A DNA stretch of 64,000 nucleotides. Source: Desulforamulus ferrireducens. Its GTDB lineage: Bacteria > Bacillota > Desulfotomaculia > Desulfotomaculales > Desulfotomaculaceae. Shown piece by piece: positions 2,663 to 26,031 of the stretch. The notes beneath the pieces were generated by a model, which was given only the letters and a program-made list of their open reading frames with translations, did no database searches and was not told the origin of the DNA. The stretch lies in contig NZ_CP019698.1 in the NCBI RefSeq assembly GCF_002005145.1, forward strand, positions 2,604,001 through 2,668,000, written 5' to 3'. The translations under genes were made by a program, and so were the position numbers. How positions within the stretch are numbered: the stretch's first letter is position 1; every line of letters begins with the position of its first letter.

Positions 2663-2690
2663 CAAATAATGCGTGAAAGGAAGTGAGTGT

Positions 2691-4196
2691 TTGAATTTAC
2701 TCTTTGAAAAATTTAAAGAGGTTATCTTCTCCGTCCTGCCCATTACATTTATCGTTGTAATACTACACTTTACCCTTACTCCTCTGGAAACACCGCAGTT
2801 TATCAGATTTCTCCTCGGGGCACTACTGATAATCATTGGACTTTCAATTTTTTTGGTAGGAGTAGACAAAGGGATCACTCCCATTGGCAATTTAATGGGT
2901 TCCTCTCTGACGAAAACTAATAAATTATGGATTGTAGGCGTGGCCGGTTTTTTTCTGGGCTTTTTTATTTCCATTGCCGAACCTGATTTACATATATTAG
3001 CAGGACAAGTGGATTTTGTTACTGGCAGTGTGGTTTCTAAGTTTACCATAGTTGTCATTGTGTCACTCGGTATTGCCGCCCTTCTCGCTCTGGGTCTGAT
3101 CAGAATTGTTTATAATATGCAGTTACATAAAATGCTAACTATACTATATCTAATAGTATTTGCCTTAGCTATCTATACCTCCCCGGAATTTCTTGCCATA
3201 TCATTTGATGCCTCCGGTGCCACCACCGGTGCTTTAACCGTACCCTTCATTTTAGCCCTTGCTTTGGGTGTATCCAAACTAAAAAAGGACAGTCAGGCTT
3301 CAGAAAACGACAGTTTCGGACTAGTTGCCATTACATCAGCTGGTGCTATAATAGCAGTAATGGTGATGAATATTATTACTGGAACTGAAGAAATGTCCGG
3401 CAGTCTTGAATTTAATCTTTCTCACTCTGCCTCTATTCTGGAACCTTTTATTCATGAATTACCAAAAATATCAGGGGAAATAATTTTGGCTTTGTCTCCC
3501 ATTATTATCCTTTTTTTACTTTTTCAGAAGATTTCTTTTAAGCTCTCAAAAAGAACAGTTCTTAAGATCATTAAGGGTCTTATTTACACTTTTGTTGGTT
3601 TAGTATTATTTTTAGTAGGTGTTAATGCCGGCTTTATGGAAGTGGGTGGTGTAGTAGGCTACAGTGTCGCATCACTGGAAAGTAAGTCTTATGTAGTTAT
3701 TATCGGCTTTATTTTGGGCTTAGTAACTATTTTAGCTGAACCTGCGGTACACGTACTTACGAACCAGATTGAAGATGTGACCAGTGGTTCTGTAAAGAGG
3801 AGCGTGGTATTGTTTGCACTATCAATTGGAGTTGGTATCGCCATTGCGCTCTCCATGGTCAGAATAATTATTGCGGAAGTCCAGTTATGGCATTATTTGT
3901 TGCCAGGATACATTATCGCCATTGTTATGACCTATTACGTGCCAAAACTTTTTGTGGGTATTGCTTTTGATTCGGGAGGTGTTGCTTCCGGACCAATGAC
4001 AGCAACCTTTATCTTGGCCTTTGCCCAAGGTGTGGCGGAGGCTATTGAAGGAGCAGATGTTTTAAGAGAGGGCTTTGGCATGATAGCAATGGTTGCCCTA
4101 ACACCATTGATTGCCCTGCAGGTCCTAGGTTTTATTTATAAAATTCAGTCCTCCAAAGGAGGGATCAAAGCGAATGCTAATGCAAAAGAATTATGA
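2691..4196 (+). CDS. DUF1538 integral membrane protein, internally duplicated (putative transporter)
   Basis: About 501 residues from a TTG at 2691, chosen because AAAGGAAGTGAG lies 6-14 nt upstream; an in-frame GTG at 2673 lies upstream of that signal. The protein is almost wholly hydrophobic and consists of two homologous halves (about 1-235 and 255-500). Each half carries an AEPxxHxLxxQ segment followed by VT(s)GS (ISIAEPDLHIL; TILAEPAVHVL) and a second FDxxGxxxGxxTxxFILAxAxGV segment. I count about seven hydrophobic segments per half. The sequence matches the DUF1538 family, whose function is unknown. It overlaps the downstream P-II-like gene by 23 nt, which suggests control by a P-II protein as in AmtB/GlnK. 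The substrate is not predictable. Confidence 0.8.
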   Translation: MNLLFEKFKEVIFSVLPITFIVVILHFTLTPLETPQFIRFLLGALLIIIGLSIFLVGVDKGITPIGNLMGSSLTKTNKLWIVGVAGFFLGFFISIAEPDLHILAGQVDFVTGSVVSKFTIVVIVSLGIAALLALGLIRIVYNMQLHKMLTILYLIVFALAIYTSPEFLAISFDASGATTGALTVPFILALALGVSKLKKDSQASENDSFGLVAITSAGAIIAVMVMNIITGTEEMSGSLEFNLSHSASILEPFIHELPKISGEIILALSPIIILFLLFQKISFKLSKRTVLKIIKGLIYTFVGLVLFLVGVNAGFMEVGGVVGYSVASLESKSYVVIIGFILGLVTILAEPAVHVLTNQIEDVTSGSVKRSVVLFALSIGVGIAIALSMVRIIIAEVQLWHYLLPGYIIAIVMTYYVPKLFVGIAFDSGGVASGPMTATFILAFAQGVAEAIEGADVLREGFGMIAMVALTPLIALQVLGFIYKIQSSKGGIKANANAKEL

Positions 4197-4860
4197 TAAT
4201 AAAGAACTTGAATTAATTTGTATGATCCTAAATTTTGGCCTGGCAAGTAAAGCCATTAAACTGGCTAAGAAGAATGGGGTATTGGGAGCTACAGTCTTTT
4301 TAGGCAGGGGAACCATAAAGAACCGTATTTTAGAATTCTTAGAGATAAATGATTCGCGGAAAGAAATTGTTTTAATGATTGCTGAAAAGGCAACTGCTTA
4401 TAAAGCCTTGGAGGCACTAAATAAAGACCTGGCTTTGCATAAACCAAATCATGGCATAGCTTTTACCTTCTCAGTGGCTAACCTATGGGGTAGTAAAGAA
4501 TACCAAAAACAAGATAGCCAAGTTCAGCAGGATAACAATAAAAGAGGTGGTGAAAACACCATGTATCAGGCTATTTATACCATCGTAGATAGAGGAAATG
4601 CAGAAAATGTTATTTCGGCAGCAAATAAGGCAGGCGCCAGGGGAGGTACCATAATAAATGCCCGGGGTTCAGGCATTCATGAAACCCAAACCCTGTTTGC
4701 CATGCAGATTGAACCGGAGAAAGAAATGGTACTGATTATTTCTAAAAACACCCTAACAGAAGCCATTGTTGCGTCTATTAGAGAAGAGCTTAGCATTGAT
4801 GAACCAGGTAAGGGCATCATCTTTGTCCTTGATGTAAACAAAACTTACGGACTATATTAA
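4174..4860 (+). CDS. Tandem P-II-like signalling protein (two fused P-II domains)
   Basis: A 228-residue protein with two P-II-like ferredoxin-fold domains. Domain 1 is about residues 10-108 (start LELICMILNFGLASKAIKLA, HGIAFTFSV near its end). Domain 2 is about 130-228 (QAIYTIVDRGNAENVISAA, GARGGTIINARG, PGKGIIFVLDVNKTYGL). The GxGxIFV strand near the end corresponds to the P-II B-loop/C-terminal region. The T-loop tyrosine motif of classical GlnB is absent. The ATG at 4174 has AAAGGAGG at 4155-4162. The 22-residue linker contains a ribosome-binding-site-like AGAGGTGG (4543-4550) followed by ATG at 4561, so domain 2 might also be made alone. It probably binds a small effector and acts on the adjacent DUF1538 protein. 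Confidence 0.78.
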   Translation: MLMQKNYDNKELELICMILNFGLASKAIKLAKKNGVLGATVFLGRGTIKNRILEFLEINDSRKEIVLMIAEKATAYKALEALNKDLALHKPNHGIAFTFSVANLWGSKEYQKQDSQVQQDNNKRGGENTMYQAIYTIVDRGNAENVISAANKAGARGGTIINARGSGIHETQTLFAMQIEPEKEMVLIISKNTLTEAIVASIREELSIDEPGKGIIFVLDVNKTYGLY

Positions 4861-4878: not shown

Positions 4879-4907
4879 GGTGTCAAGGGGACGGTTCCCT
4901 TGGCACC
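4879..4907. repeat. GTGTCAAGGGGACGG-type palindrome; likely terminator
   Basis: GGTGTCAAGGG, a 7-nt loop (GACGGTT), then CCCTTGGCACC: a near-perfect 11-bp inverted repeat starting 19 bases after the P-II stop codon and followed by TTTCTTG. It could terminate the rightward operon, and it belongs to the repeat family also seen at 7539, 16330 and 16777. A weaker related stretch (GTCAAGGGAACAGGAGCCG) lies at about 4936-4955. Confidence 0.75.
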
Positions 4908-7393: not shown

Positions 7394-7538
7394 CTTTTTC
7401 ACCCCCGAGTATAGATTAGCATACAAAAATATCTTTTTTATGTCCTAAGGGGAAGCACCAAGGAAAAAGAACATTTTTGACGATTAATTATTTGGATAAC
7501 TTTGTTTATGCATAGGGTGTCAGGGGGCATAGCAAAAG

Positions 7539-7563
7539 GTGTCATAGGAACCCCTTGACACCT
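7539..7563. repeat. GTGTCAAGGGG-type palindrome between convergent-side gene ends
   Basis: GGTGTCATAGG, a short loop, then CCCCTTGACACC. The outer GGTGTCA/TGACACC arms are exact. It begins 2 bases beyond the stop of the DNRLRE-like gene, with a half-copy (GGGTGTCAGGGGG) at 7515-7527. It is placed to act as a terminator for the leftward glycosyltransferase operon and is a member of the same family as 4879, 16330 and 16777. Confidence 0.7.
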
Positions 7564-7564
7564 C

Positions 7565-8434
7565 TTATTGTCTACCTTGCAACCATATTTTTACTAATCC
7601 CTGGCCGGTTTCCTGGGATGGCAGCCTAAACTTGAGTCTCACATAACGGGTGAAAAAGTTACTTACCATCACCTGTGACATGCCAGGGTATAACTCTATT
7701 TCAGGTTCTTCATCAATAAAGTTTTTATTATCCGGACTGCACTGTAGTTTTACTAGAATATTCTTATGACCAATATTCTTTACAATTAAACTATAGGTGG
7801 AGTAATCCCAGATTTCCACTGCCGAAGAATAACTATCCTGCTTCGCAACCGGATGGACTTCCTCTAGATTAAGTTTATTTATTGTATTAGGAATGTCATG
7901 GGAAAGGGTTTTTACCGTAAGTAAGGGCTGCTTACGCTTATCGTGGCAGTTTTTACCATGGAAGAATAACACGCCATTAGAACAATTACTAATGGGAAGC
8001 AGCGCCAAGCCATGATTAATAATACCACCGTATAACCAGCATTTAACAAAGTTGGTTATATTTAATTCTACCTTCTGGCAACCGACCCTAATAGGAACAA
8101 TTTTTTTCATCTTTGGTATTATGGTTGGTCTATTCAAAAAATTGGTCTGGCAATCTCGAAATGGCTCTGCTAACATTTGAATCACCACTGCTTCCGGAGG
8201 AGTGCCCACAAAAGGAGGGCTAAACAAATTAAGTCTTAATGCTGCTGAGGTAACAACCTCCTTGTCCTCAATACCCTTAAGGTCAAAAAAAATATAGGAA
8301 ATAAAATATGTATTGCGAAAAAAACTATCACTAATTTTTCCGACGGGTAGGTATTGGCTACGGCACTGGGGCTTTGCTGCATTATTGTTATAGACAAAGG
8401 TATCTTGTTGGACAGGAAAGTTGTAAATTGACAT
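7565..8434 (-). CDS. DNRLRE-like/DUF6385-like structural protein, last gene of the glycosyltransferase operon
   Basis: A 289-residue protein without a signal peptide or membrane segment. Residues 1-175 resemble the DNRLRE beta-sandwich domain found in surface and spore proteins: an early QQDTFVY, then SYIFFDL, AALRLNLFSP and VELNITNFVKCWLYG, then LLTVKT. Residues 200-289 resemble the small domain I know as DUF6385 (VKLQCSPDNKNFID, then YVRLKF and KIWLQGRQ at the end), which is shared with the C-terminus of the repeat protein at 15345-16313. It is probably a structural component or glycosylation substrate rather than an enzyme. It lies 68 nt after the two-domain glycosyltransferase gene. The domain names are from memory of family patterns, not from a search. 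Confidence 0.65.
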   Translation of the reverse strand: MSIYNFPVQQDTFVYNNNAAKPQCRSQYLPVGKISDSFFRNTYFISYIFFDLKGIEDKEVVTSAALRLNLFSPPFVGTPPEAVVIQMLAEPFRDCQTNFLNRPTIIPKMKKIVPIRVGCQKVELNITNFVKCWLYGGIINHGLALLPISNCSNGVLFFHGKNCHDKRKQPLLTVKTLSHDIPNTINKLNLEEVHPVAKQDSYSSAVEIWDYSTYSLIVKNIGHKNILVKLQCSPDNKNFIDEEPEIELYPGMSQVMVSNFFTRYVRLKFRLPSQETGQGLVKIWLQGRQ

Positions 8435-8502
8435 ACTAGCTACACCTCATGCTTTTTTACAACATATGTTGCAGCATTAAGATTTGTTCAATATTACAGG
8501 GC

Positions 8503-10044
8503 TTATATCTCCTCCCATTTCACTAAATTAGGCGACGGGTCTAAGATAGACTCGTATTGTTCGGCAATACCATATCTGCATCCTGGGTCCAGTTTCTTAT
8601 AACGATAGTATTTAGCCAGTCGGTCCTCCGGTCTTATCCAGCCCAGGTGTTTAATTCTGAGGAAGTGATTCTCCCCTTTAAAATTACCAATATTGATCGG
8701 AAACCGACCACAGTGGAGAGGTGACTCATGCCACTGGTAGTTATAACCAGGGACATATCTGACCATAAAGGGCCGATAGAATTGATGGGCACACCAGTAC
8801 CTGTCTTCGCGATAATGCGTTTCGGTCCACATATCAAAGAGACGGAAGGCATACCAGTATACATCAGTATTTTGGGCCAGTTTTTTTAAGATTGGCGGAG
8901 CACTTGCCTCAAAGAGCTCATCTGCGTCCAGTATGAGAATCCAGTCCGGCTGCGTATCAATGGCCATCTGCCAAAGTTTTTTTCTCAAATTGATTTCATT
9001 AGCAAACCCTGAAGTGGGGTTGCTTGCAATGGTTAGGGGAATACCCTCTAAAGTTTCCCTACATACCTCAATTGTGTCATCCTCACTGGCATCATCAAGA
9101 ATTACTGCATTATGAATATACTGGCGGGCATTACTTAACACTTGCTTTAAGAACCTACCTGCTTCATTTCTCACTAACATCGCCAGTGTGATTTTATCAC
9201 CCTTACCTCGTTTACTGTTGGTACCCTGCTTTTTTTCCTTTACCAAACCCATCTTTCTTTTGTAATTTTTAAGCTCTTCTAAATCTGATTCTCTGTAAAT
9301 ATGGAAGGGTGGAAAATGGGTATCTGCATAAAGTTCTAAGCCCAGGGCAACAGCCCTCACACAGAAATGACGATCCTCACCCCAGAGGCTGAGATTATAA
9401 ATTTCACTGAAGGATACCCCCTTTAATAGGGCATTTCTGCTGATCAAAGTACAGGCGCCCAGTCCACCAACCTTATAAATGCCGGGTTTTTTAAGCATAT
9501 CAAGAAATTCTTGCATGCGTCTTTTAACTTCTTCTTCATCTAAAGTTTCCTCCCGCCGGGCAAAGAAAAGTTTATACTGATCCGCCACCCATACTTGAGG
9601 CATAGGCGCTAGGTTAGGTTCCCACTTGGTCCAAAAAACTTCTGAAACAATATCCTTATTTTGTTTGACCAAGTGAGTAATTGTTTTTGGATGCAGGTAA
9701 AGATCAGAATCCACCAGGAATAGGTAATCATAGCCTCCCTTAATGGCCCTATCAATTATAAGATTTTTGTAGGCGGCTACCTTCCAAATCAGCCGCTCAT
9801 TCCAGTGATGCGTCTTTTCGTCACAGACATACATATCCTCTACTTTATCAGCTTTGATAATTAGAACATTTTTCCTTTTACTGGCAAAGTGATCTAACAG
9901 GGAATGTTCGTTGTTATCGTCCACAAAAACAAAGTCTAACTGCAGTTCCCCTCTCTCCAGCTTATCCAGGGAGCGTAGAAATTCTTTTAAAATAGCTTCC
10001 TTTTGTTTAACCGGGCTGCCTAATAATACTCTTTTTCTCAGCAT
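8503..10044 (-). CDS. Two-domain glycosyltransferase (GT-A + GT2 fusion)
   Basis: 513 residues from an ATG at 10044 behind GGGGGGAGATA. The N-terminal domain (about 1-255) is a GT-A-like transferase with a DxD-type motif in YLFLVDSDLYLH and a conserved LWGEDRHFCVRA segment. After a lysine-rich linker (KEKKQGTNSKRGKGDK), the C-terminal domain (about 285-513) is a family-2 transferase starting with ITLAMLVRNEAGRFL, with ILILDADELF as the metal/nucleotide-sugar site. Two active sites in one chain suggest two successive sugar additions. The gene overlaps the 3' end of the preceding transferase gene by 38 nt. The sugar donor and acceptor are unknown. Confidence 0.82.
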   Translation of the reverse strand: MLRKRVLLGSPVKQKEAILKEFLRSLDKLERGELQLDFVFVDDNNEHSLLDHFASKRKNVLIIKADKVEDMYVCDEKTHHWNERLIWKVAAYKNLIIDRAIKGGYDYLFLVDSDLYLHPKTITHLVKQNKDIVSEVFWTKWEPNLAPMPQVWVADQYKLFFARREETLDEEEVKRRMQEFLDMLKKPGIYKVGGLGACTLISRNALLKGVSFSEIYNLSLWGEDRHFCVRAVALGLELYADTHFPPFHIYRESDLEELKNYKRKMGLVKEKKQGTNSKRGKGDKITLAMLVRNEAGRFLKQVLSNARQYIHNAVILDDASEDDTIEVCRETLEGIPLTIASNPTSGFANEINLRKKLWQMAIDTQPDWILILDADELFEASAPPILKKLAQNTDVYWYAFRLFDMWTETHYREDRYWCAHQFYRPFMVRYVPGYNYQWHESPLHCGRFPINIGNFKGENHFLRIKHLGWIRPEDRLAKYYRYKKLDPGCRYGIAEQYESILDPSPNLVKWEEI

Positions 10045-11527
10045 TATCTCCCCCCAAAACATCCCCAGTAATCTCCATTTTGGGACAATAATCACGCACA
10101 ATCAGCCTTGCTATTCCATTGGTCAGTTGACTAACTCTCTCATCAATTTTAATAAAAGCATGGTAGTCCTTTTCAATGATTAAGGAGCATAGATATAACT
10201 CCCGAACTAAGAGGCATAAATAATGGAAGGATGGTACCTGCAAAAAAGGTTGGTAGTGAATTATTTGATAAAATTCAAGCACTGACTGGCTTAGCATCAA
10301 ATCCTGCCTGGGTTCTCTAAACAGCAGTTTAATCTCAAAGATGAATAATAACATGGCGTAGTATGGCTGCTGTGCTGCAATCAACTGTTTACCTGCTTTA
10401 TTTAAAGTATCTGCTGACATGTAAGCGCATAGTTTCTCGCAGGTTAACTTATTCTTCCGGAGCAAGTCTACAATTCTAATCACGGGATAGGTAAGGCCTG
10501 TTTCATAAGTCAGTGCCGACAGGTAAAACTTAACTGCTTGCTCAACATTGCCAGACAAAAGAAAGGCATCACCAAGCAAACACAGGTGTTTATGCCTGGG
10601 TAAAAATTTATTTTCCTCTTCACCCAGTGACCTAAAAAGTTCCTCAGCGGCTTGGGCATATTTCTTTGCTTGCATGTGTCCCAATCCTCTAAAAATATGC
10701 AAATTATTATTCTCTGGTAATATTTGTAGGTATTTTTCAGTAAAGCCAAGCAACTCCTCAGAAAGCCCTAAATTTAATAGTCCATTGGCAGTAGCCACTA
10801 TTACATCTTCGAAGTACCCCTCTGAGCCGTTCATAAATTGCAGAGCTTTTTTAAGGCACTCTAGACCTTGGCCCACCAATTCCCTTTGATAATACTCCAG
10901 CGCCAGGCAGTATAAAATAAAGGGGTCCTGAGGACATTTGGCTAGCTCCCTCAATAAAATAGAGGTATTGCGCCTAAATTTATCTTTCTTTTTTATCTCG
11001 GTCTCAAGATAACCGTAATGTTTGATGATCAATGAACAGTTCTGTAAGCCTTTCCCTCGGGATTCCTGCAGTATAGATGGCGCCACCTGTTCATGAATGG
11101 CACCGCTAAACCGGTAGCAAGGCTTGTTTCTGAAGAGCCTGACAACATGATCAATCATGTATTCTCTGCCACTTCCCTGATAACTGTGGATAGTAAGGAA
11201 GTAGCCCTCTGCTTGCTCATTGGCAAGTAAAGCATGAAAGCTTTCTCTGTCAATGGATGCTAAAACTTCATCCGCATCCATTACCAGTATCCAGCTGCCT
11301 GTGGCCTGCTGCAAAGCATAGTTTCTGGCATCAGAAAAGTTTCCGTTCCAGGGATAGAAAAAAACCCTGGCACCGGCCTCCCGGGCGCGCCTCACTGTAT
11401 TATCTGTGGACCCGGTATCAACAACAATTATTTCATCAACAATATGCTTGGTGCTATTAAGGCAATTAAGAATATGCTCCTCTTCATTTTTGACAATTAA
11501 GCACAGGCTCACCTTTATGCCGACCAT
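10007..11527 (-). CDS. Family-2 glycosyltransferase with TPR-like C-terminus (third paralogue)
   Basis: A 506-residue protein. The GT2 domain (about 1-230) begins VSLCLIVKNEEEHIL and contains EIIVVDTGSTDNT (donor binding) and WILVMDADEVL (DxD metal site), then FRNKPCYRFSGAIHEQV, where the HEQ segment is typical of the SunS-like GT2/TPR group. Residues 230-500 are helical with TPR-like periodicity (ALEYYQRELVGQGLECLKKAL; LGDAFLLSGNVEQAVKFYLSAL). TPR domains in such enzymes probably bind the protein acceptor. It lies 12 nt downstream of the second paralogue and is cytoplasmic, with no membrane segments. Confidence 0.88.
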   Translation of the reverse strand: MVGIKVSLCLIVKNEEEHILNCLNSTKHIVDEIIVVDTGSTDNTVRRAREAGARVFFYPWNGNFSDARNYALQQATGSWILVMDADEVLASIDRESFHALLANEQAEGYFLTIHSYQGSGREYMIDHVVRLFRNKPCYRFSGAIHEQVAPSILQESRGKGLQNCSLIIKHYGYLETEIKKKDKFRRNTSILLRELAKCPQDPFILYCLALEYYQRELVGQGLECLKKALQFMNGSEGYFEDVIVATANGLLNLGLSEELLGFTEKYLQILPENNNLHIFRGLGHMQAKKYAQAAEELFRSLGEEENKFLPRHKHLCLLGDAFLLSGNVEQAVKFYLSALTYETGLTYPVIRIVDLLRKNKLTCEKLCAYMSADTLNKAGKQLIAAQQPYYAMLLFIFEIKLLFREPRQDLMLSQSVLEFYQIIHYQPFLQVPSFHYLCLLVRELYLCSLIIEKDYHAFIKIDERVSQLTNGIARLIVRDYCPKMEITGDVLGGDNAEKKSIIRQPG

Positions 11528-11539
11528 ATCTTCACCAAC

Positions 11540-13270
11540 TTAAAAACGGTAACTCACGTATTTGCTTATTTCATTAATTCTTTCTGCATAGTAATCATCC
11601 ATCAGCCTGCGACCCCCGGGAAGAACAAGCAAGATGTCTTGCAGCATGGTCAGCAGCCTTTGCTGAAAAATATCCTTTTCTTTAGGAAAGTCAGGCAGAT
11701 AGCGGTGGCATATATTTAATAATTTTAGGTAAAAATTTTTCGTCTCCAACTGCTCAAAATTTATATAAGGTGGTAACCCCTTGGGCAACCAATGGCTTAA
11801 ACTGTTAAAGAACCTGGCAATTATCCTAAGTTCTTTATGCTGCCACAGTTCCAAACTTTGCGCCCGCACAGCTGCGTAATTTCCCTGTAAAATTAACCCC
11901 AGCATAAGATAAATCTTAGATTCAACATAAAATGCACTGTCCACGGGCAGCTGCTTCAAATATTCCAGCCCCGGGCCAATTTCCCCAGACAAAATATGAT
12001 ATTTCCCTAAATAATACATATACTCCCAAGCCGGTGGATTAAGACCCTTCGCCATTAATAAGCAGCGCTTAGCGTAACCCGGAGACCCCATTTGATAAAA
12101 GAGATCAGCTACTGTCAGGGCTACCTTATAGTTGGCAAAGTAATTCTTATCCTCAAAATATTGCAAAACACCGCTACAACCACAGCGAGCCATTTTGACC
12201 ATAAATAAACTGCAACTGGGATAGTGGTATTGGTTATTTTCTCTTAACGCCTGCTCGTAACACTGTTCCGCCTGCTGTTTTTGGTTTAATTTTTCGTAAC
12301 AAAAACCTAAATGATAATAGGCTAAAAATCCTTCTGTCCCCTGTAAGTGGCTAAAGGTTACCGCCGGGGTGCCGCTTTCTATCGCTTTATGAAACCACTT
12401 AAGTGCAATCTTGTACTCTGCTTTTTCCTCCAACGCACAGCCGGTTAGGTAATAAACATCAGCATAATTAACGTAGTGTAATGCTGCTTCTTGCCCCAAA
12501 CAAATAACTCGCTCAAATTCCTGTAATAAATTAAGGCAGGTTAACAAATACCGTAATGCCGCAGACTTAAACATAATAAAGTCATCGGTTAGCTTACTAT
12601 AAGCCTTTTCCAGCAAGGGCAGCGCCAATTTGGGCTTACCCAAACCCAACCATTCTACTCCCAGGTAGTAACATAAAAAAGGATTTTCCGGCTCATCTTT
12701 AATTTCAGCCTTTAAGAATCTTAGATTGCGCCCTTTCTTTAGGTTACGCTCTTTGGGCGATAGCAGTGCATGTTTTATTTTCACTCCCTCTGCTACACCC
12801 ACCACCTGCCGGTTTTTTACCACAACCTGTTCATGAATCCTACCCGTGAAGTAATATTCATTATTATTTTTAAACAAGCGAAGCACTAAGAAATTATTAA
12901 ACTCACCAGTTGATTCATTGATAGGATGCTCCAGGGGAAGCATATAAGCCTCAATATTTTTATCCTTTACAATAAAATCCTTAAGGGTGCAATCTGCACA
13001 CACTAATTTCTCATCTGCGTCAAGGTACAATATCCAGTCACCGCTGGCCTGGCTTAGGGCATAGTTCCTGGCTGCACTAAAATCATGCTGCCACGCATAA
13101 GAAAAAACTTTATCAGTATATTGGCGAGCCACTTGCATTGTATTATCAGTGGAGCCGGTATCCACTATGACAATTTCATCTACAAAGCCTTGCGCACTCT
13201 CCAAACAGGCAGCCAGACGGGAGGCCTCATTTTTTACAATCATGGTTAAACTAATGGTCATTTCGCTCAA
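11540..13270 (-). CDS. Family-2 glycosyltransferase with TPR-like C-terminus (second paralogue)
   Basis: A 576-residue protein starting at a TTG (13270) whose ribosome-binding site GGAGGGGGG lies inside the end of the preceding gene; only one base separates that stop from this start. The GT2 domain begins ISLTMIVKNEASRL, with EIVIVDTGSTDNT and WILYLDADEKL as donor and metal sites and GRIHEQVVV further on. The C-terminal half contains several TPR-like helical pairs (YYLGVEWLGLGKPKLALPLL; YHLGFCYEKLNQKQQAEQCY). The GT2 domain is clearly homologous to the paralogues on either side, whereas the TPR part is more divergent, which suggests different acceptors or sites. Confidence 0.88.
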   Translation of the reverse strand: MSEMTISLTMIVKNEASRLAACLESAQGFVDEIVIVDTGSTDNTMQVARQYTDKVFSYAWQHDFSAARNYALSQASGDWILYLDADEKLVCADCTLKDFIVKDKNIEAYMLPLEHPINESTGEFNNFLVLRLFKNNNEYYFTGRIHEQVVVKNRQVVGVAEGVKIKHALLSPKERNLKKGRNLRFLKAEIKDEPENPFLCYYLGVEWLGLGKPKLALPLLEKAYSKLTDDFIMFKSAALRYLLTCLNLLQEFERVICLGQEAALHYVNYADVYYLTGCALEEKAEYKIALKWFHKAIESGTPAVTFSHLQGTEGFLAYYHLGFCYEKLNQKQQAEQCYEQALRENNQYHYPSCSLFMVKMARCGCSGVLQYFEDKNYFANYKVALTVADLFYQMGSPGYAKRCLLMAKGLNPPAWEYMYYLGKYHILSGEIGPGLEYLKQLPVDSAFYVESKIYLMLGLILQGNYAAVRAQSLELWQHKELRIIARFFNSLSHWLPKGLPPYINFEQLETKNFYLKLLNICHRYLPDFPKEKDIFQQRLLTMLQDILLVLPGGRRLMDDYYAERINEISKYVSYRF

Positions 13271-13271
13271 G

Positions 13272-15233
13272 CTAAATCCCCCCTCCAGGGTCTTTACCAG
13301 CCGGGTGTTCTATAGCTTCCAGCGACTTTGACCTTAATACTTCCTGCCAGACCTTATAAAGTTCCATTTGCTTTATATAGTACTGCGGAACTTCTGGCTC
13401 AATTTCTATGGCGTAACGATAATGCTTTTCCGCCTCAGCATAGTTGCCTATTTCCCGCTGGGCTTCTGCCAGCAGGAAGTGTGCCTCCCCTGACCTCTTA
13501 TGTTGTAGGTAATCCTCAATAAGCTCAATAGCTTTCTCATAACAGCCATATTTATAAAAGATACGGCTTAGCTCCCACTTCCTCTCCTCGATGCAGGGGG
13601 GAGCCACCTTATTCAACATCTCCCAAGCCAGCTCCAATTGACCTAAGTCCAGCAGCCGGTTGATGATATCCAGCAACAAAGTAACCCCGTCTACCCCAAG
13701 ATAAATTTTTTGGGTCTTTATTCTTTTGTCTTGCGTTTTCAGCATTAGTTTTAAAACATTTTCTGTATCTACCGAGAGTCCCTTACTACAAAGCTCTGTT
13801 ACCAGCTCTCGAACTTTTTTCTTCTTACCTTGCACCCAATAGCAAAATAACTCGTTAAATTTGGCTAAGGGATAAAGATTGTTATCTCCACTAAGCTCTC
13901 CCAGAATCCTTAATGCCTCAAGGAAACGTTTTCTTTGGATTAAACAAAAGGCTTTGCGGAGTAGAATATCTCCCGCCACCAGCCCATTGGCTATTACTTC
14001 TTCAATAAATTCAAGGCATAATTGGTAAGCGCCCTGATCATAAAAAATATTGGCCAGTGCCAACCTTGCTTGGTTATTATCAAAATCAATAACTTTCTCC
14101 AAGCATTTTCTGGTGTAATCCGGGTTTTTCCGTGGTTCAAGTATCTGAATTATTCTTTCTAAAGAATGGATAAAATTAGGGTTATCCTTAAGGCTATCCA
14201 GGTAGTATTTAAGGGCCTCATCATAGTTCAAAAACTTTTCAGCAATCTGCCCGAGATGGTAATAGGAACGGAATCCCCTGGTACCGGCAAAGGAAGCAAA
14301 CTGTGGTGGCTGTTCCGGCATAGCTACTGCTTTTAGGAAAAACTCAGCTGCCTTTTTATATGATTTTTGGTCCAGACAGCACAGGCCTCCGTAGTAATAT
14401 AGATCGGCATAGTTAGGAAATAGACTGACACCAACCTGTACTACCTCCAATGCCTGGGCAGGTTGTTTCGCTGAATAGTAGGCAAGGACTATATATCTCA
14501 ACAATTTGGGAAAATAGATTGTATTGGTATTGGTTTTATTCGCCACCTGAACCAACACCCTGGCCGCTTCTTCAAATTTCTCCGCGCGAAATAATTCAAC
14601 ACCGTAATGGTATTGCAAAATATTATTATCTGGTTTGCTGGCCAATTCTTTTTCAATAATTCTCAGATTTCTTATTTTCTTATTCTTGTCCTCGATTTGT
14701 TGCTCCAGGTAGCCATAGTGATTAATTACCACGCCTTCCGCTATCCGGTAAGCGGCATTGCTATTTTTCTCTAAAATTACATCAACTATCTGTTCATGGA
14801 TGGCCCCATGGAATCTATATTCAGGTTTATTTCTAAAAAGACGAAAAACTAAATCCGGGCAGGTCTCCACCCAACCTTCCTTCCCAATAAAATTAACAAT
14901 TTTAATAAAATAACCCTCCACCTGTTCTTCTCTGATGTACCTTGTTAAATGTTCCCTACTGTCACTGGTTAGCTCCTCATCGGCATCCAAGAATAATATC
15001 CAGTCGGCTTTTGCCTGCTCCAGTGAATAATTTCTTGCCTCACTGAAATTATCGTTCCACTGGTAATGGTAAACTTTAGCACCATATTCCTTGGCCAGTG
15101 CTACGGTATTATCAGAGGAACCTGTATCGACAATGATAATTTCATCCACCACATCTTTGACACTTTTTAGACATCTGCCCAGGTTTTTCTCCTCGTTTTT
15201 GACAATCATGCATAAGCTAATTCCTTTTCCCAT
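13272..15233 (-). CDS. Family-2 glycosyltransferase with long TPR-like C-terminus (first gene of operon)
   Basis: 653 residues from an ATG at 15233 preceded by AAGGGAGT. A longer reading frame to 15368 would run across the divergent promoter region and is rejected. The N-terminus ISLCMIVKNEEKNLGRCL, EIIIVDTGSSDNT and WILFLDADEEL define the GT2 domain, followed by RFHGAIHEQIV. From about residue 200 to the end there are many TPR-like repeats (YYGGLCCLDQKSYKKAAEFF; HFLLAEAQREIGNYAEAEKH). This is the longest of the three paralogues and the first gene of the leftward operon. It is transcribed away from the repeat-protein gene across a 111-bp gap. Confidence 0.88.
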   Translation of the reverse strand: MGKGISLCMIVKNEEKNLGRCLKSVKDVVDEIIIVDTGSSDNTVALAKEYGAKVYHYQWNDNFSEARNYSLEQAKADWILFLDADEELTSDSREHLTRYIREEQVEGYFIKIVNFIGKEGWVETCPDLVFRLFRNKPEYRFHGAIHEQIVDVILEKNSNAAYRIAEGVVINHYGYLEQQIEDKNKKIRNLRIIEKELASKPDNNILQYHYGVELFRAEKFEEAARVLVQVANKTNTNTIYFPKLLRYIVLAYYSAKQPAQALEVVQVGVSLFPNYADLYYYGGLCCLDQKSYKKAAEFFLKAVAMPEQPPQFASFAGTRGFRSYYHLGQIAEKFLNYDEALKYYLDSLKDNPNFIHSLERIIQILEPRKNPDYTRKCLEKVIDFDNNQARLALANIFYDQGAYQLCLEFIEEVIANGLVAGDILLRKAFCLIQRKRFLEALRILGELSGDNNLYPLAKFNELFCYWVQGKKKKVRELVTELCSKGLSVDTENVLKLMLKTQDKRIKTQKIYLGVDGVTLLLDIINRLLDLGQLELAWEMLNKVAPPCIEERKWELSRIFYKYGCYEKAIELIEDYLQHKRSGEAHFLLAEAQREIGNYAEAEKHYRYAIEIEPEVPQYYIKQMELYKVWQEVLRSKSLEAIEHPAGKDPGGGI

Positions 15234-15344
15234 ATAGGCTACTCCCTTGAAGTAATTCTTTTTTAAAATATGCAGAAAAAATGTAACCTTCCACCCCGCA
15301 ACCAAATAATCTGGTAGGGAGAAATTAACAAGGGAGGTATAAAA

Positions 15345-16313
15345 GTGCCAAACTTTAAAATATTCCAAGATAATCCAGATTACGCTCGCATAAAGATTTT
15401 TGGAAGTAATAATATAGCGCTGAACACCGACGCCAGCGGTAATCTCGCCATTACCTCTACCGGATTGGCCATCACCGCCCCCACCAACGGCCTGACTGTT
15501 ACAGCTTCCGCTGATGGTCTTTCTATCACTCCGCCCGCTGATGGCCTTACCATTACCTCTACCGGGCTGGCTATCACGGCTCCCACCAACGGCCTGACTG
15601 TAACAGCTTCCGCCGATGGTCTTTCTATCACTCCGCCCGCTGATGGCCTTACCATTACCTCTACCGGGCTGGCTATCACGGCTCCCACCAACGGCCTGAC
15701 TGTCACAGCTTCCGCCGATGGTCTTTCCATCACTCCCCCTGCCGGTGGCCTTGCCATTACCTCTACCGGACTGGCCATTACGGCTCCCACTAACGGCCTG
15801 ACTGTCACAGCTTCCGCCGATGGTCTTTCCATCACTCCCCCTGCCGATGGCCTTACCATTACCTCTACCGGACTGGCCATTACGGCTCCCACTAACGGTC
15901 TGACTGTCACAGCTTCCGCCGATGGTCTTTCTATCACTCCCCCTGCCGGTGGATTATTGGTAACTGGTTCACTTAGTACGGCACTCGGTACCACCGAAGT
16001 CATTACAGTGGTGAGTAATAACACGTCAACCGCAGGTGGACCGGTTGCTGATGTTAACGCCTTTGCAGTGCGTACCTGGACCTATGGAGTAATAAATGCC
16101 TCCCTGGATGAAAATGCTCAAGCAGTGGTTAAACTTCAAATAAGTCCCGATAGTATTAATTGGATTGACGATGTAAGTAACACCACCATTAATCAAAACA
16201 GCATGCATACTTTTGTGGCAACCACCTTCTTGAAATATGCCCGGTTGTACTACAGTGCGGTAAATGCAGCCAGTGCCATCACACTAAACATTTATTTCCA
16301 GGGACAAATATAG
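15345..16313 (+). CDS. Ser/Thr-rich 34-residue-repeat protein with DUF6385-like C-terminus
   Basis: A 322-residue protein from a GTG at 15345 with AGGGAGG at 15331-15337. The N-terminal cap (about 1-35) precedes five near-identical 34-residue units. Each unit is made of three 9-residue subunits plus a 7-residue one of the form GLxITxPxxD (GLAITAPTN, GLTVTASAD, GLSITPPAD, GLTITST). The alternating hydrophobic/Thr pattern suggests a beta-solenoid. The last 85 residues or so form the domain shared with the protein at 7565-8434 (VKLQISPDSINWID ... YARLYY ... LNIYFQGQI). There is no signal peptide, membrane anchor or LPXTG. Hydroxyl-rich repeats beside four glycosyltransferase genes make it a probable O-glycosylation acceptor and a surface or spore-coat component; this is inference. 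Confidence 0.75.
   Translation: MPNFKIFQDNPDYARIKIFGSNNIALNTDASGNLAITSTGLAITAPTNGLTVTASADGLSITPPADGLTITSTGLAITAPTNGLTVTASADGLSITPPADGLTITSTGLAITAPTNGLTVTASADGLSITPPAGGLAITSTGLAITAPTNGLTVTASADGLSITPPADGLTITSTGLAITAPTNGLTVTASADGLSITPPAGGLLVTGSLSTALGTTEVITVVSNNTSTAGGPVADVNAFAVRTWTYGVINASLDENAQAVVKLQISPDSINWIDDVSNTTINQNSMHTFVATTFLKYARLYYSAVNAASAITLNIYFQGQI
15451..15960 (+). repeat. Five tandem 102-bp coding repeats
   Basis: Units begin at 15451, 15553, 15655, 15757 and 15859, each starting TTACCTCTACCGG. The period is exactly 102 bp (34 codons), so the frame is kept. Differences between copies are mainly third-position changes, plus PPADGL versus PPAGGL. High DNA identity implies recent duplication or gene conversion, so the copy number may vary between strains. 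Confidence 0.95.
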
Positions 16314-16329
16314 TTTTATTATCATAAAC

Positions 16330-16390
16330 GTGCCAAGGGGACGGTTCCTTTGACACTACATGGGTGTCATAGGAACCGTCCCCTTGGTAC
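16330..16390. repeat. Long inverted repeat between convergent genes; likely bidirectional terminator
   Basis: GTGCCAAGGGGACGG through GACAC (16330-16356) is followed after 7 bases by its near-exact reverse complement (16364-16390). The two arms are the same repeat family member in opposite orientations, giving a stem of about 25 bp. It lies 17 bases after the repeat-protein stop and 4 bases before the end of the DUF2200 gene. Confidence 0.85.
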
Positions 16391-16744: not shown

Positions 16745-16776
16745 GATACATCCTCTCTTAAATAGTTTACTCTAAT

Positions 16777-16805
16777 GTGTCTAGGGGAACCGTCCTCTTG
16801 ACACC
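16777..16805. repeat. GTGTCAAGGGGACGG-type palindrome
   Basis: GTGTCTAGGGGAACCG then TCCTCTTGACACC. It is a shorter copy of the family seen at 4879, 7539 and 16330. It lies between the alpha/beta hydrolase stop (16806) and the DUF2200 start, so it could end hydrolase transcription. Confidence 0.6.
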
Positions 16806-25724: not shown

Positions 25725-26031
25725 GGGTATGGCGGCACTAGTACCCGCAGGGCACAGGTACCCGCAGGGCACAAGATTATCCACCGCTCGGCTCCTGCTC
25801 CACGTCGACGACACTGAGGTTCACTGCGGGCCAAATCAGGGTCGCCTCAATTCAACCTCCTGTTTCAGTTCGGCTAGCGCGCACATCCTGTGCGCGCTCC
25901 CCTGATTTGGTCCTGCGTTCACCAAGTGTCGTTACCGACGCTCCGCAAGGGGCTCGCTATGGATAACTTGTGCCCCTTGCGGGTGCTTGTGCCCCTTGTG
26001 GGTACTTGTGCCCCTTGGGTGCACCATACCC
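25725..26031. repeat. 307-bp imperfect palindrome in the glyQS leader
   Basis: The ends GGGTATGG (25725) and CCATACCC (26031) are exact complements. Moving inwards, further arms pair: GTACCCGCAGGGCACAAG with CTTGTGCCCCTTGCGGGT, TTATCCA with TGGATAA, CGACACT with AGTGTCG, and GCCAAATCAGGG with CCCTGATTTGG. The centre holds an exact hairpin AGCGCGCACA-TCC-TGTGCGCGCT (25876-25898). The left arm has two copies of a 16-bp unit, the right arm three of a 19-bp unit. It is more GC-rich than its surroundings and has no plausible gene. It lies between the T-box terminator and the glyQ ribosome-binding site, so it should be transcribed. Confidence 0.85.

What the first reader, a model, noticed from the sequence alone, without database searches (positions are those of the whole stretch)
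7539..16390. Self-contained glycosyltransferase/repeat-protein cluster bracketed by the same palindrome
Seen: a leftward operon of three tandem GT2+TPR genes, one GT-GT fusion and a DNRLRE-like protein. Divergent from it, across 111 bp, is a Ser/Thr-rich 34-residue-repeat protein. The two non-enzymatic proteins share a C-terminal domain. A copy of one palindrome family lies 2-17 bases outside the cluster at each end. Inference: a surface or spore-coat glycoprotein system in which cytoplasmic TPR-GT2 enzymes build O-glycans on the repeat protein and its partner, then assemble them through the shared domain. The flanking repeats may mark a mobile or exchangeable cassette, or may only be terminators. 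TPR-GT2 enzymes of the SunS type modify peptides, which supports protein rather than lipid acceptors.
Basis: partly seen in the sequence, partly recalled or inferred. Interest (0 to 1): 0.78.

Follow-up and report, generated by a model that had tools for sequence, protein, structure and literature searches.

The report
Dedicated spore-surface glycoprotein gene cluster
A conserved block of six genes in spore-forming bacteria looks like a kit for making a sugar-decorated repeat protein on the spore surface: it works like the collagen-like spore glycoproteins of Bacillus and Clostridium, but with a different, unstudied protein family as the scaffold.

Summary
The gene content is confirmed. Three tandem GT2-TPR genes, a GT-GT fusion and a DNRLRE+DUF6385 protein run leftward. 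A divergent repeat protein (five 102-bp units, 34 aa each, built from 9-aa GLxITxPxx steps) also ends in DUF6385. The spore guess gains independent support. A sigma-K-type promoter lies upstream of 18 of 25 repeat-gene orthologues. With the pattern fixed, it lies upstream of 24 of 53 DUF6385 genes in a second set, against 16 of 299 neighbouring ORFs (p about 1e-12). In 299 related genomes, all 38 with DUF6385 also carry spoIVA. Neither non-enzymatic protein has a signal peptide. The GT2-TPR enzymes are closest to the protein glycosyltransferases GmaR and SunS, and C. difficile SgtA beside bclA3 has the same architecture. In one genome the same GT-GT enzyme sits next to a BclA-like collagen protein. 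The palindromes are 3'-end hairpins. They also occur outside the block and are absent from congeners, so they do not define a mobile cassette. Best reading: a late mother-cell spore-surface glycoprotein system, a new variant of the BclA-SgtA kind. Glycosylation and location are inferred.

The parts
15345..16313 (+). Repeat protein (322 aa): conserved N-terminal motif MPNFKIFQDNPDxARIKIFG, Ser/Thr-rich 9-aa GLxITxPxx repeats in 34-aa higher-order units, C-terminal DUF6385 jelly roll; no Cys, no signal peptide
13272..15233 (-). GT2-TPR glycosyltransferase 1 (closest solved structures GmaR, SunS)
11540..13270 (-). GT2-TPR glycosyltransferase 2
10007..11527 (-). GT2-TPR glycosyltransferase 3
8503..10044 (-). 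GT-GT fusion (weak Anp1-like N-terminal half + GT2); best-conserved marker of the block
7565..8434 (-). DNRLRE/CBM96-like domain + C-terminal DUF6385 partner protein
15286..15313 (+). Sigma-K-type promoter of the repeat gene (AC-N17-AATAATCTG), same place and spacing in most orthologues
15264..15272 (-). CATATTTTA: mother-cell-type -10 (CATAnnnTA) of the glycosyltransferase operon, conserved in orthologues
8460..8487 (-). Second sigma-K-type promoter (AC-N17-CATATGTTG) just upstream of the DNRLRE-DUF6385 gene
   Evidence: one of only four strict matches on both strands of the 64-kb window
7538..7563 (.). Palindrome at the 3' end of the operon; hairpin followed by TTTT on the - strand, probable terminator
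16330..16390 (.). Long palindrome between two convergent genes; strong hairpin (-53 kcal/mol), probable bidirectional terminator

Best explanation
The block is a self-contained spore-surface glycoprotein module. Late in sporulation, sigma-K in the mother cell turns on the repeat gene, the divergent glycosyltransferase operon and the DNRLRE-DUF6385 gene (promoters shown by sequence pattern; regulation inferred). The repeat protein stays in the mother-cell cytoplasm because it has no signal peptide. There the GT2-TPR enzymes grip the repeat with their TPR parts and add sugars to its many Thr/Ser, and the GT-GT fusion extends or caps the chain (inferred from enzyme family and neighbours). The conserved N-terminal motif docks the protein on the outer coat or exosporium, the glycosylated repeat forms the stalk, and the DUF6385 jelly roll forms a knob or oligomerising end. 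The DNRLRE-DUF6385 protein is a second, probably sugar-binding, surface component (inferred). Mother-cell lysis then exposes the coat.
For: The divergent order repeat gene / TPR-GT 1, 2, 3 / GT-GT is kept in nearly all of 24 loci from several genera. The six-gene block is kept in six of the seven congener regions read besides the window (one cut at a contig end), with differing flanks. Sigma-K pattern upstream of the repeat gene: 18/25, expected 0.8, only at the N17 spacer. Fixed pattern on 53 DUF6385 genes: 24 hits versus 1.4 expected, z=11.8, no enrichment for sigma A, D, E, F, G or H; 16/299 in neighbouring ORFs. The consensus comes from PMC3416734. DUF6385 occurs only in spoIVA-positive genomes, 38/38, p=0.002. 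GT-GT and DUF6385 co-occur, p=3e-8; 20 of 31 DUF6385 loci have a strong GT2-TPR gene within 8 kb, although the window's genome holds only five such genes. TPR-GT 1 matches GmaR 1e-38 and SunS 6e-24, with the DADE motif invariant. In another genome a GT-GT orthologue and a GT2-TPR gene adjoin a BclA-like collagen protein. C. difficile SgtA, GT2+TPR beside bclA3, adds O-GlcNAc to Thr in the collagen repeats (PMC7157674).
Against: No experiment: expression, spore location and glycosylation are all inferred. Eight of 21 genomes with a full-length GT-GT fusion lack DUF6385, and one of these (G028) lacks spoIVA, so this enzyme also serves other settings. Eleven of 31 DUF6385 loci have no strong GT2-TPR gene nearby. 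The operon promoter has the right -10 but no clear sigma-K -35. The repeat-gene -10 reads AATA, not CATA, in most orthologues. Genomes and genes in these tests are not independent by descent, and the 53 genes include some members of the same cluster type.
Confidence: 0.75

Rival explanations
1. The enzymes make a vegetative surface polysaccharide or S-layer glycan, and the repeat protein is an ordinary cell-surface adhesin.
For: GT2 domains are generic, and some DUF6385 loci lack GT2-TPR genes.
Against: No signal peptide, transmembrane segment or anchor in the repeat protein; sigma-K-type and not sigma-A promoters; TPR-GT2 enzymes closest to protein glycosyltransferases.
Confidence: 0.1
2. The DUF6385 proteins build a spore filament or coat lattice whose function is structural, and the adjacent enzymes glycosylate something else, such as coat polysaccharide.
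For: The DUF6385 jelly roll resembles endospore-appendage (Ena) subunits in fold searches (7a02 Z 10.3; 8pdz, 9i0y, 9t3p).
Against: Unrelated jelly rolls (GOLD domains, XepA, YomS, PirA) score as well; profile comparison shows no sequence relation; Ena (PF13157) is in 2 of 299 genomes, neither with DUF6385. Conserved linkage argues the enzymes act on the repeat protein.
Confidence: 0.12
3. A mobile cassette mobilised or delimited by the flanking palindromes.
For: The exact palindrome core occurs only in this window in the whole genome; the block has different flanks in many congeners.
Against: Palindromes also lie at 4879 and 16776, always at gene 3' ends, most folding as clear hairpins, and are absent around the block in congeners; the GT-GT gene is present in 9 of 9 congeners.
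Confidence: 0.03

Closest known systems
BclA3 / SgtA of Clostridioides difficile (spore glycoprotein and its GT2-TPR O-GlcNAc transferase)
   Same: Cytoplasmic GT2+TPR enzyme gene next to a Thr-rich repeat protein gene; Thr in the repeat is glycosylated; spore surface (PMC7157674).
   Different: Here there are three GT2-TPR enzymes plus a GT-GT fusion; the scaffold is a DUF6385 protein with 9-aa GLxITxPxx repeats, not collagen-like; a second DNRLRE-DUF6385 protein is present.
GmaR (Listeria flagellin glycosyltransferase) and SunS (S-glycosyltransferase of sublancin)
   Same: GT2 domain of TPR-GT 1 matches their solved structures by sequence (1e-38, 6e-24).
   Different: They act on flagellin or a bacteriocin peptide, and each is a single enzyme.
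Endospore appendages (Ena, DUF3992/PF13157)
   Same: Jelly-roll fold similarity; sporulation context.
   Different: No sequence relation, non-overlapping distribution in the sample, no Cys in the repeat protein.

Membership tests
BclA-type collagen-like spore glycoprotein | Collagen-like GXX repeats | tested here: not met
   Repeats are GLxITxPxx; no collagen match. A related enzyme pair does adjoin a collagen-like protein in locus L074.
BclA-type collagen-like spore glycoprotein | Layout of N-terminal docking region, Thr-rich repeat stalk, C-terminal beta knob | tested here: met
   Conserved N-terminal 33 aa, variable repeat number, DUF6385 jelly roll pLDDT about 93. The roles of the parts are inferred.
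SgtA-like protein glycosyltransferase | GT2 domain + C-terminal TPR, gene beside the acceptor repeat gene | tested here: met
   architecture of SgtA from PMC7157674. Direct sequence comparison with SgtA was not made.
SgtA-like protein glycosyltransferase | Transfers GlcNAc to Thr of the repeat | not testable with these tools
   Needs an enzyme assay.
Sigma-K regulon (late mother cell) | AC-N17-CATAnnnTA promoter | tested here: met
   the -10 of the repeat gene often begins AATA; the operon lacks a clear -35.
SunS S-glycosyltransferase (TIGR04195) | NCBIfam score over the cut-off of 350 | tested here: not met
   73-100 bits.
Endospore appendage (Ena, PF13157) | Sequence family membership | tested here: not met
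   No PF13157 match in the window's genome; hhalign probability 0.5%.
Endospore appendage (Ena, PF13157) | Subunit jelly-roll fold | tested here: inconclusive
   Ena chains are among the top hits but tied with unrelated jelly rolls.
Mobile cassette bounded by repeats | Boundary repeats conserved with the block | tested here: not met
   Absent in congener blocks.

The most novel reading that the evidence does not exclude
DUF6385 is a previously unrecognised spore-surface domain. With its 9-residue-repeat stalks it builds a non-collagen, Ena-like glycosylated fibre or nap layer on the spores of many anaerobic Firmicutes, with enzymes interchangeable with those of BclA-type collagens.
Probability: 0.3. 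Interest if true: 0.75.

Novelty: new variant of a known kind. Interest (0 to 1): 0.55.

Why it matters
It gives a testable function (late-sporulation spore surface) to DUF6385, a domain with no paper in the library searched. It points to a glycosylated spore surface in sulfate reducers and related anaerobes, where the papers searched held nothing on the subject, and suggests that one set of protein glycosyltransferases can be paired with quite different repeat scaffolds.

Tried and rejected
Palindromes as transposon or REP/RAYT array: two Y1 transposase genes exist in the genome, but about 240-410 kb away, and the exact palindrome core is confined to this window. Presence/absence between syntenic neighbours: the GT-GT gene is in 9/9 congeners, so no empty site could be sought; the HK and PPDK genes that flank it here are not next to it in the congener genomes where this could be read. 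DUF6385 as a distant Ena homologue: not supported by profile comparison. Literature on DUF6385, or on spore glycosyltransferases in Desulfotomaculum: no paper. Structure of the repeat stalk: AlphaFold confidence about 50-65, not interpretable. PDB sequence search with the repeat-protein profile: nothing. Second structure job not used.

Full report
Observation. All genes described are present at the stated coordinates. From the left: a DNRLRE + DUF6385 protein (7565-8434, -), a GT-GT fusion (8503 to about 10044, -), three GT2-TPR genes (10007-11527, 11540-13270, 13272-15233, all -) and, divergent across 111 bp, a repeat protein (15345-16313, +). The array is five copies of a 102-bp unit at 94% matches; the 34-aa unit is itself made of 9-aa steps of the form GLxITxPxx. 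Both non-enzymatic proteins end in DUF6385 (PF19912), and the genome holds no other copy. All four sit at 3' ends of genes; three fold as clear hairpins and the fourth (16776) only weakly.

Co-occurrence. A scan of one genome per species found 24 loci with a relative of the repeat protein. In nearly all of them the divergent order repeat gene / TPR-GT 1 / TPR-GT 2 / TPR-GT 3 / GT-GT is preserved where the contig is long enough. Within the genus the six-gene block, including the DNRLRE-DUF6385 gene, is preserved in six of the seven congener regions read besides the window (one of them cut by a contig end; the seventh, L083, is rearranged), in several different gene contexts, and the GT-GT gene is found in 9 of 9 congeners. 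In a sample of 299 genomes of the phylum, DUF6385 is in 38, full-length GT-GT in 21 and both in 13 (Fisher p 3e-8). Of 31 DUF6385 loci read, 20 have a strong GT2-TPR gene within 8 kb, while the window's own genome has only five such genes in 3.24 Mb, three of them here. Genes are related by descent, so these p-values are guides.

Sporulation link. Upstream of the repeat gene, 18 of 25 orthologues carry AC-N17-nATAnnnT(A/G), expected 0.8, and neighbouring spacer lengths give only about the chance number. This pattern was relaxed after seeing the alignment, so it was then fixed and applied to 53 DUF6385 genes from other genomes, some of them members of the same cluster type: 24 hits against 1.4 expected, 15 with CATA, again only at N17. 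Scoring against published B. subtilis consensus sequences (PMC3416734 Table 4, for sigma F, E, G and K; sigma A, D and H from general knowledge) gave z=11.8 for sigma K and nothing for the others. Neighbouring ORFs in the same loci gave 16 of 299 (p about 1e-12). In the window itself one of only four strict matches on both strands of 64 kb lies directly upstream of the DNRLRE-DUF6385 gene (8460-8487), and the glycosyltransferase operon has a conserved CATAnnnTA -10 without a clear -35. All 38 genomes with DUF6385 have spoIVA, against 257 of 299 overall (p 0.002). Repeat proteins have no hydrophobic N-terminus and almost no Cys, as expected for proteins made in the mother cell and laid on the spore.

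Enzymes. The GT2 domain of TPR-GT 1 is closest, among solved structures, to GmaR (1e-38) and SunS (6e-24), both protein or peptide glycosyltransferases. DADE is invariant in all three. The NCBIfam SunS model is far below its cut-off, so they are not SunS. C. difficile SgtA has the same GT2+TPR layout, is encoded beside bclA3 and adds beta-O-GlcNAc to Thr of its collagen repeats (PMC7157674). In genome G105 the GT-GT orthologue and a GT2-TPR gene adjoin an 892-aa collagen-like protein with a C-terminal beta domain (locus L074). This is a single case, but a direct bridge to BclA-type systems.

Structure. AlphaFold gives a confident jelly roll for DUF6385 (pLDDT about 93) and low confidence for the stalk. 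Fold searches list Ena subunits among the best hits, but tied with GOLD domains, XepA, YomS and PirA. Profile comparison shows no relation to Ena, and Ena is in 2 of 299 genomes, neither with DUF6385. A shared fold is possible; kinship is not shown.

Conclusion. The block is best read as a late mother-cell spore-surface glycoprotein system: gene content, linkage and promoter pattern are shown; glycosylation, location and the role of each enzyme are inferred. It works like BclA3-SgtA but is not a member of the BclA family, because the collagen repeat is absent. The palindromes are most likely terminators. Weak points are the GT-GT genomes without DUF6385 (8 of 21, one without spoIVA), the DUF6385 loci without nearby GT2-TPR genes (11 of 31), and the lack of any experiment.

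Noticed in passing
L074:4884-10454: BclA-like collagen repeat protein (892 aa) immediately beside a GT-GT fusion and a GT2-TPR gene; the same enzyme family with a different scaffold.
   Followed up: partly
L036:5986-10966: GT-GT and two GT2-TPR genes around a DNRLRE/CBM96 protein without DUF6385; another possible acceptor type.
   Followed up: no
window 25795-25948 (-): TwoAYGGAY RNA motif (Rfam, 48.9 bits) overlapping the start of the glycyl-tRNA synthetase alpha gene, with short tandem repeats nearby (25741-25773, 25966-26017).
   Followed up: no
window 4879-4906, 7538-7563, 16330-16390, 16776-16805: Palindrome family AAGGGGACGGTTCC whose exact core occurs in the whole genome only in this window; why it is local is unexplained.
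   Followed up: partly
window 2673-4860: DUF1538 membrane protein gene next to a P-II-like regulator gene.
   Followed up: no
own genome C1:1365201-1368109 and 1339770-1340567: The only other two GT2-TPR genes and a stand-alone relative of the N-terminal half of the GT-GT fusion lie within 30 kb of each other; possibly a second protein-glycosylation locus.
   Followed up: no
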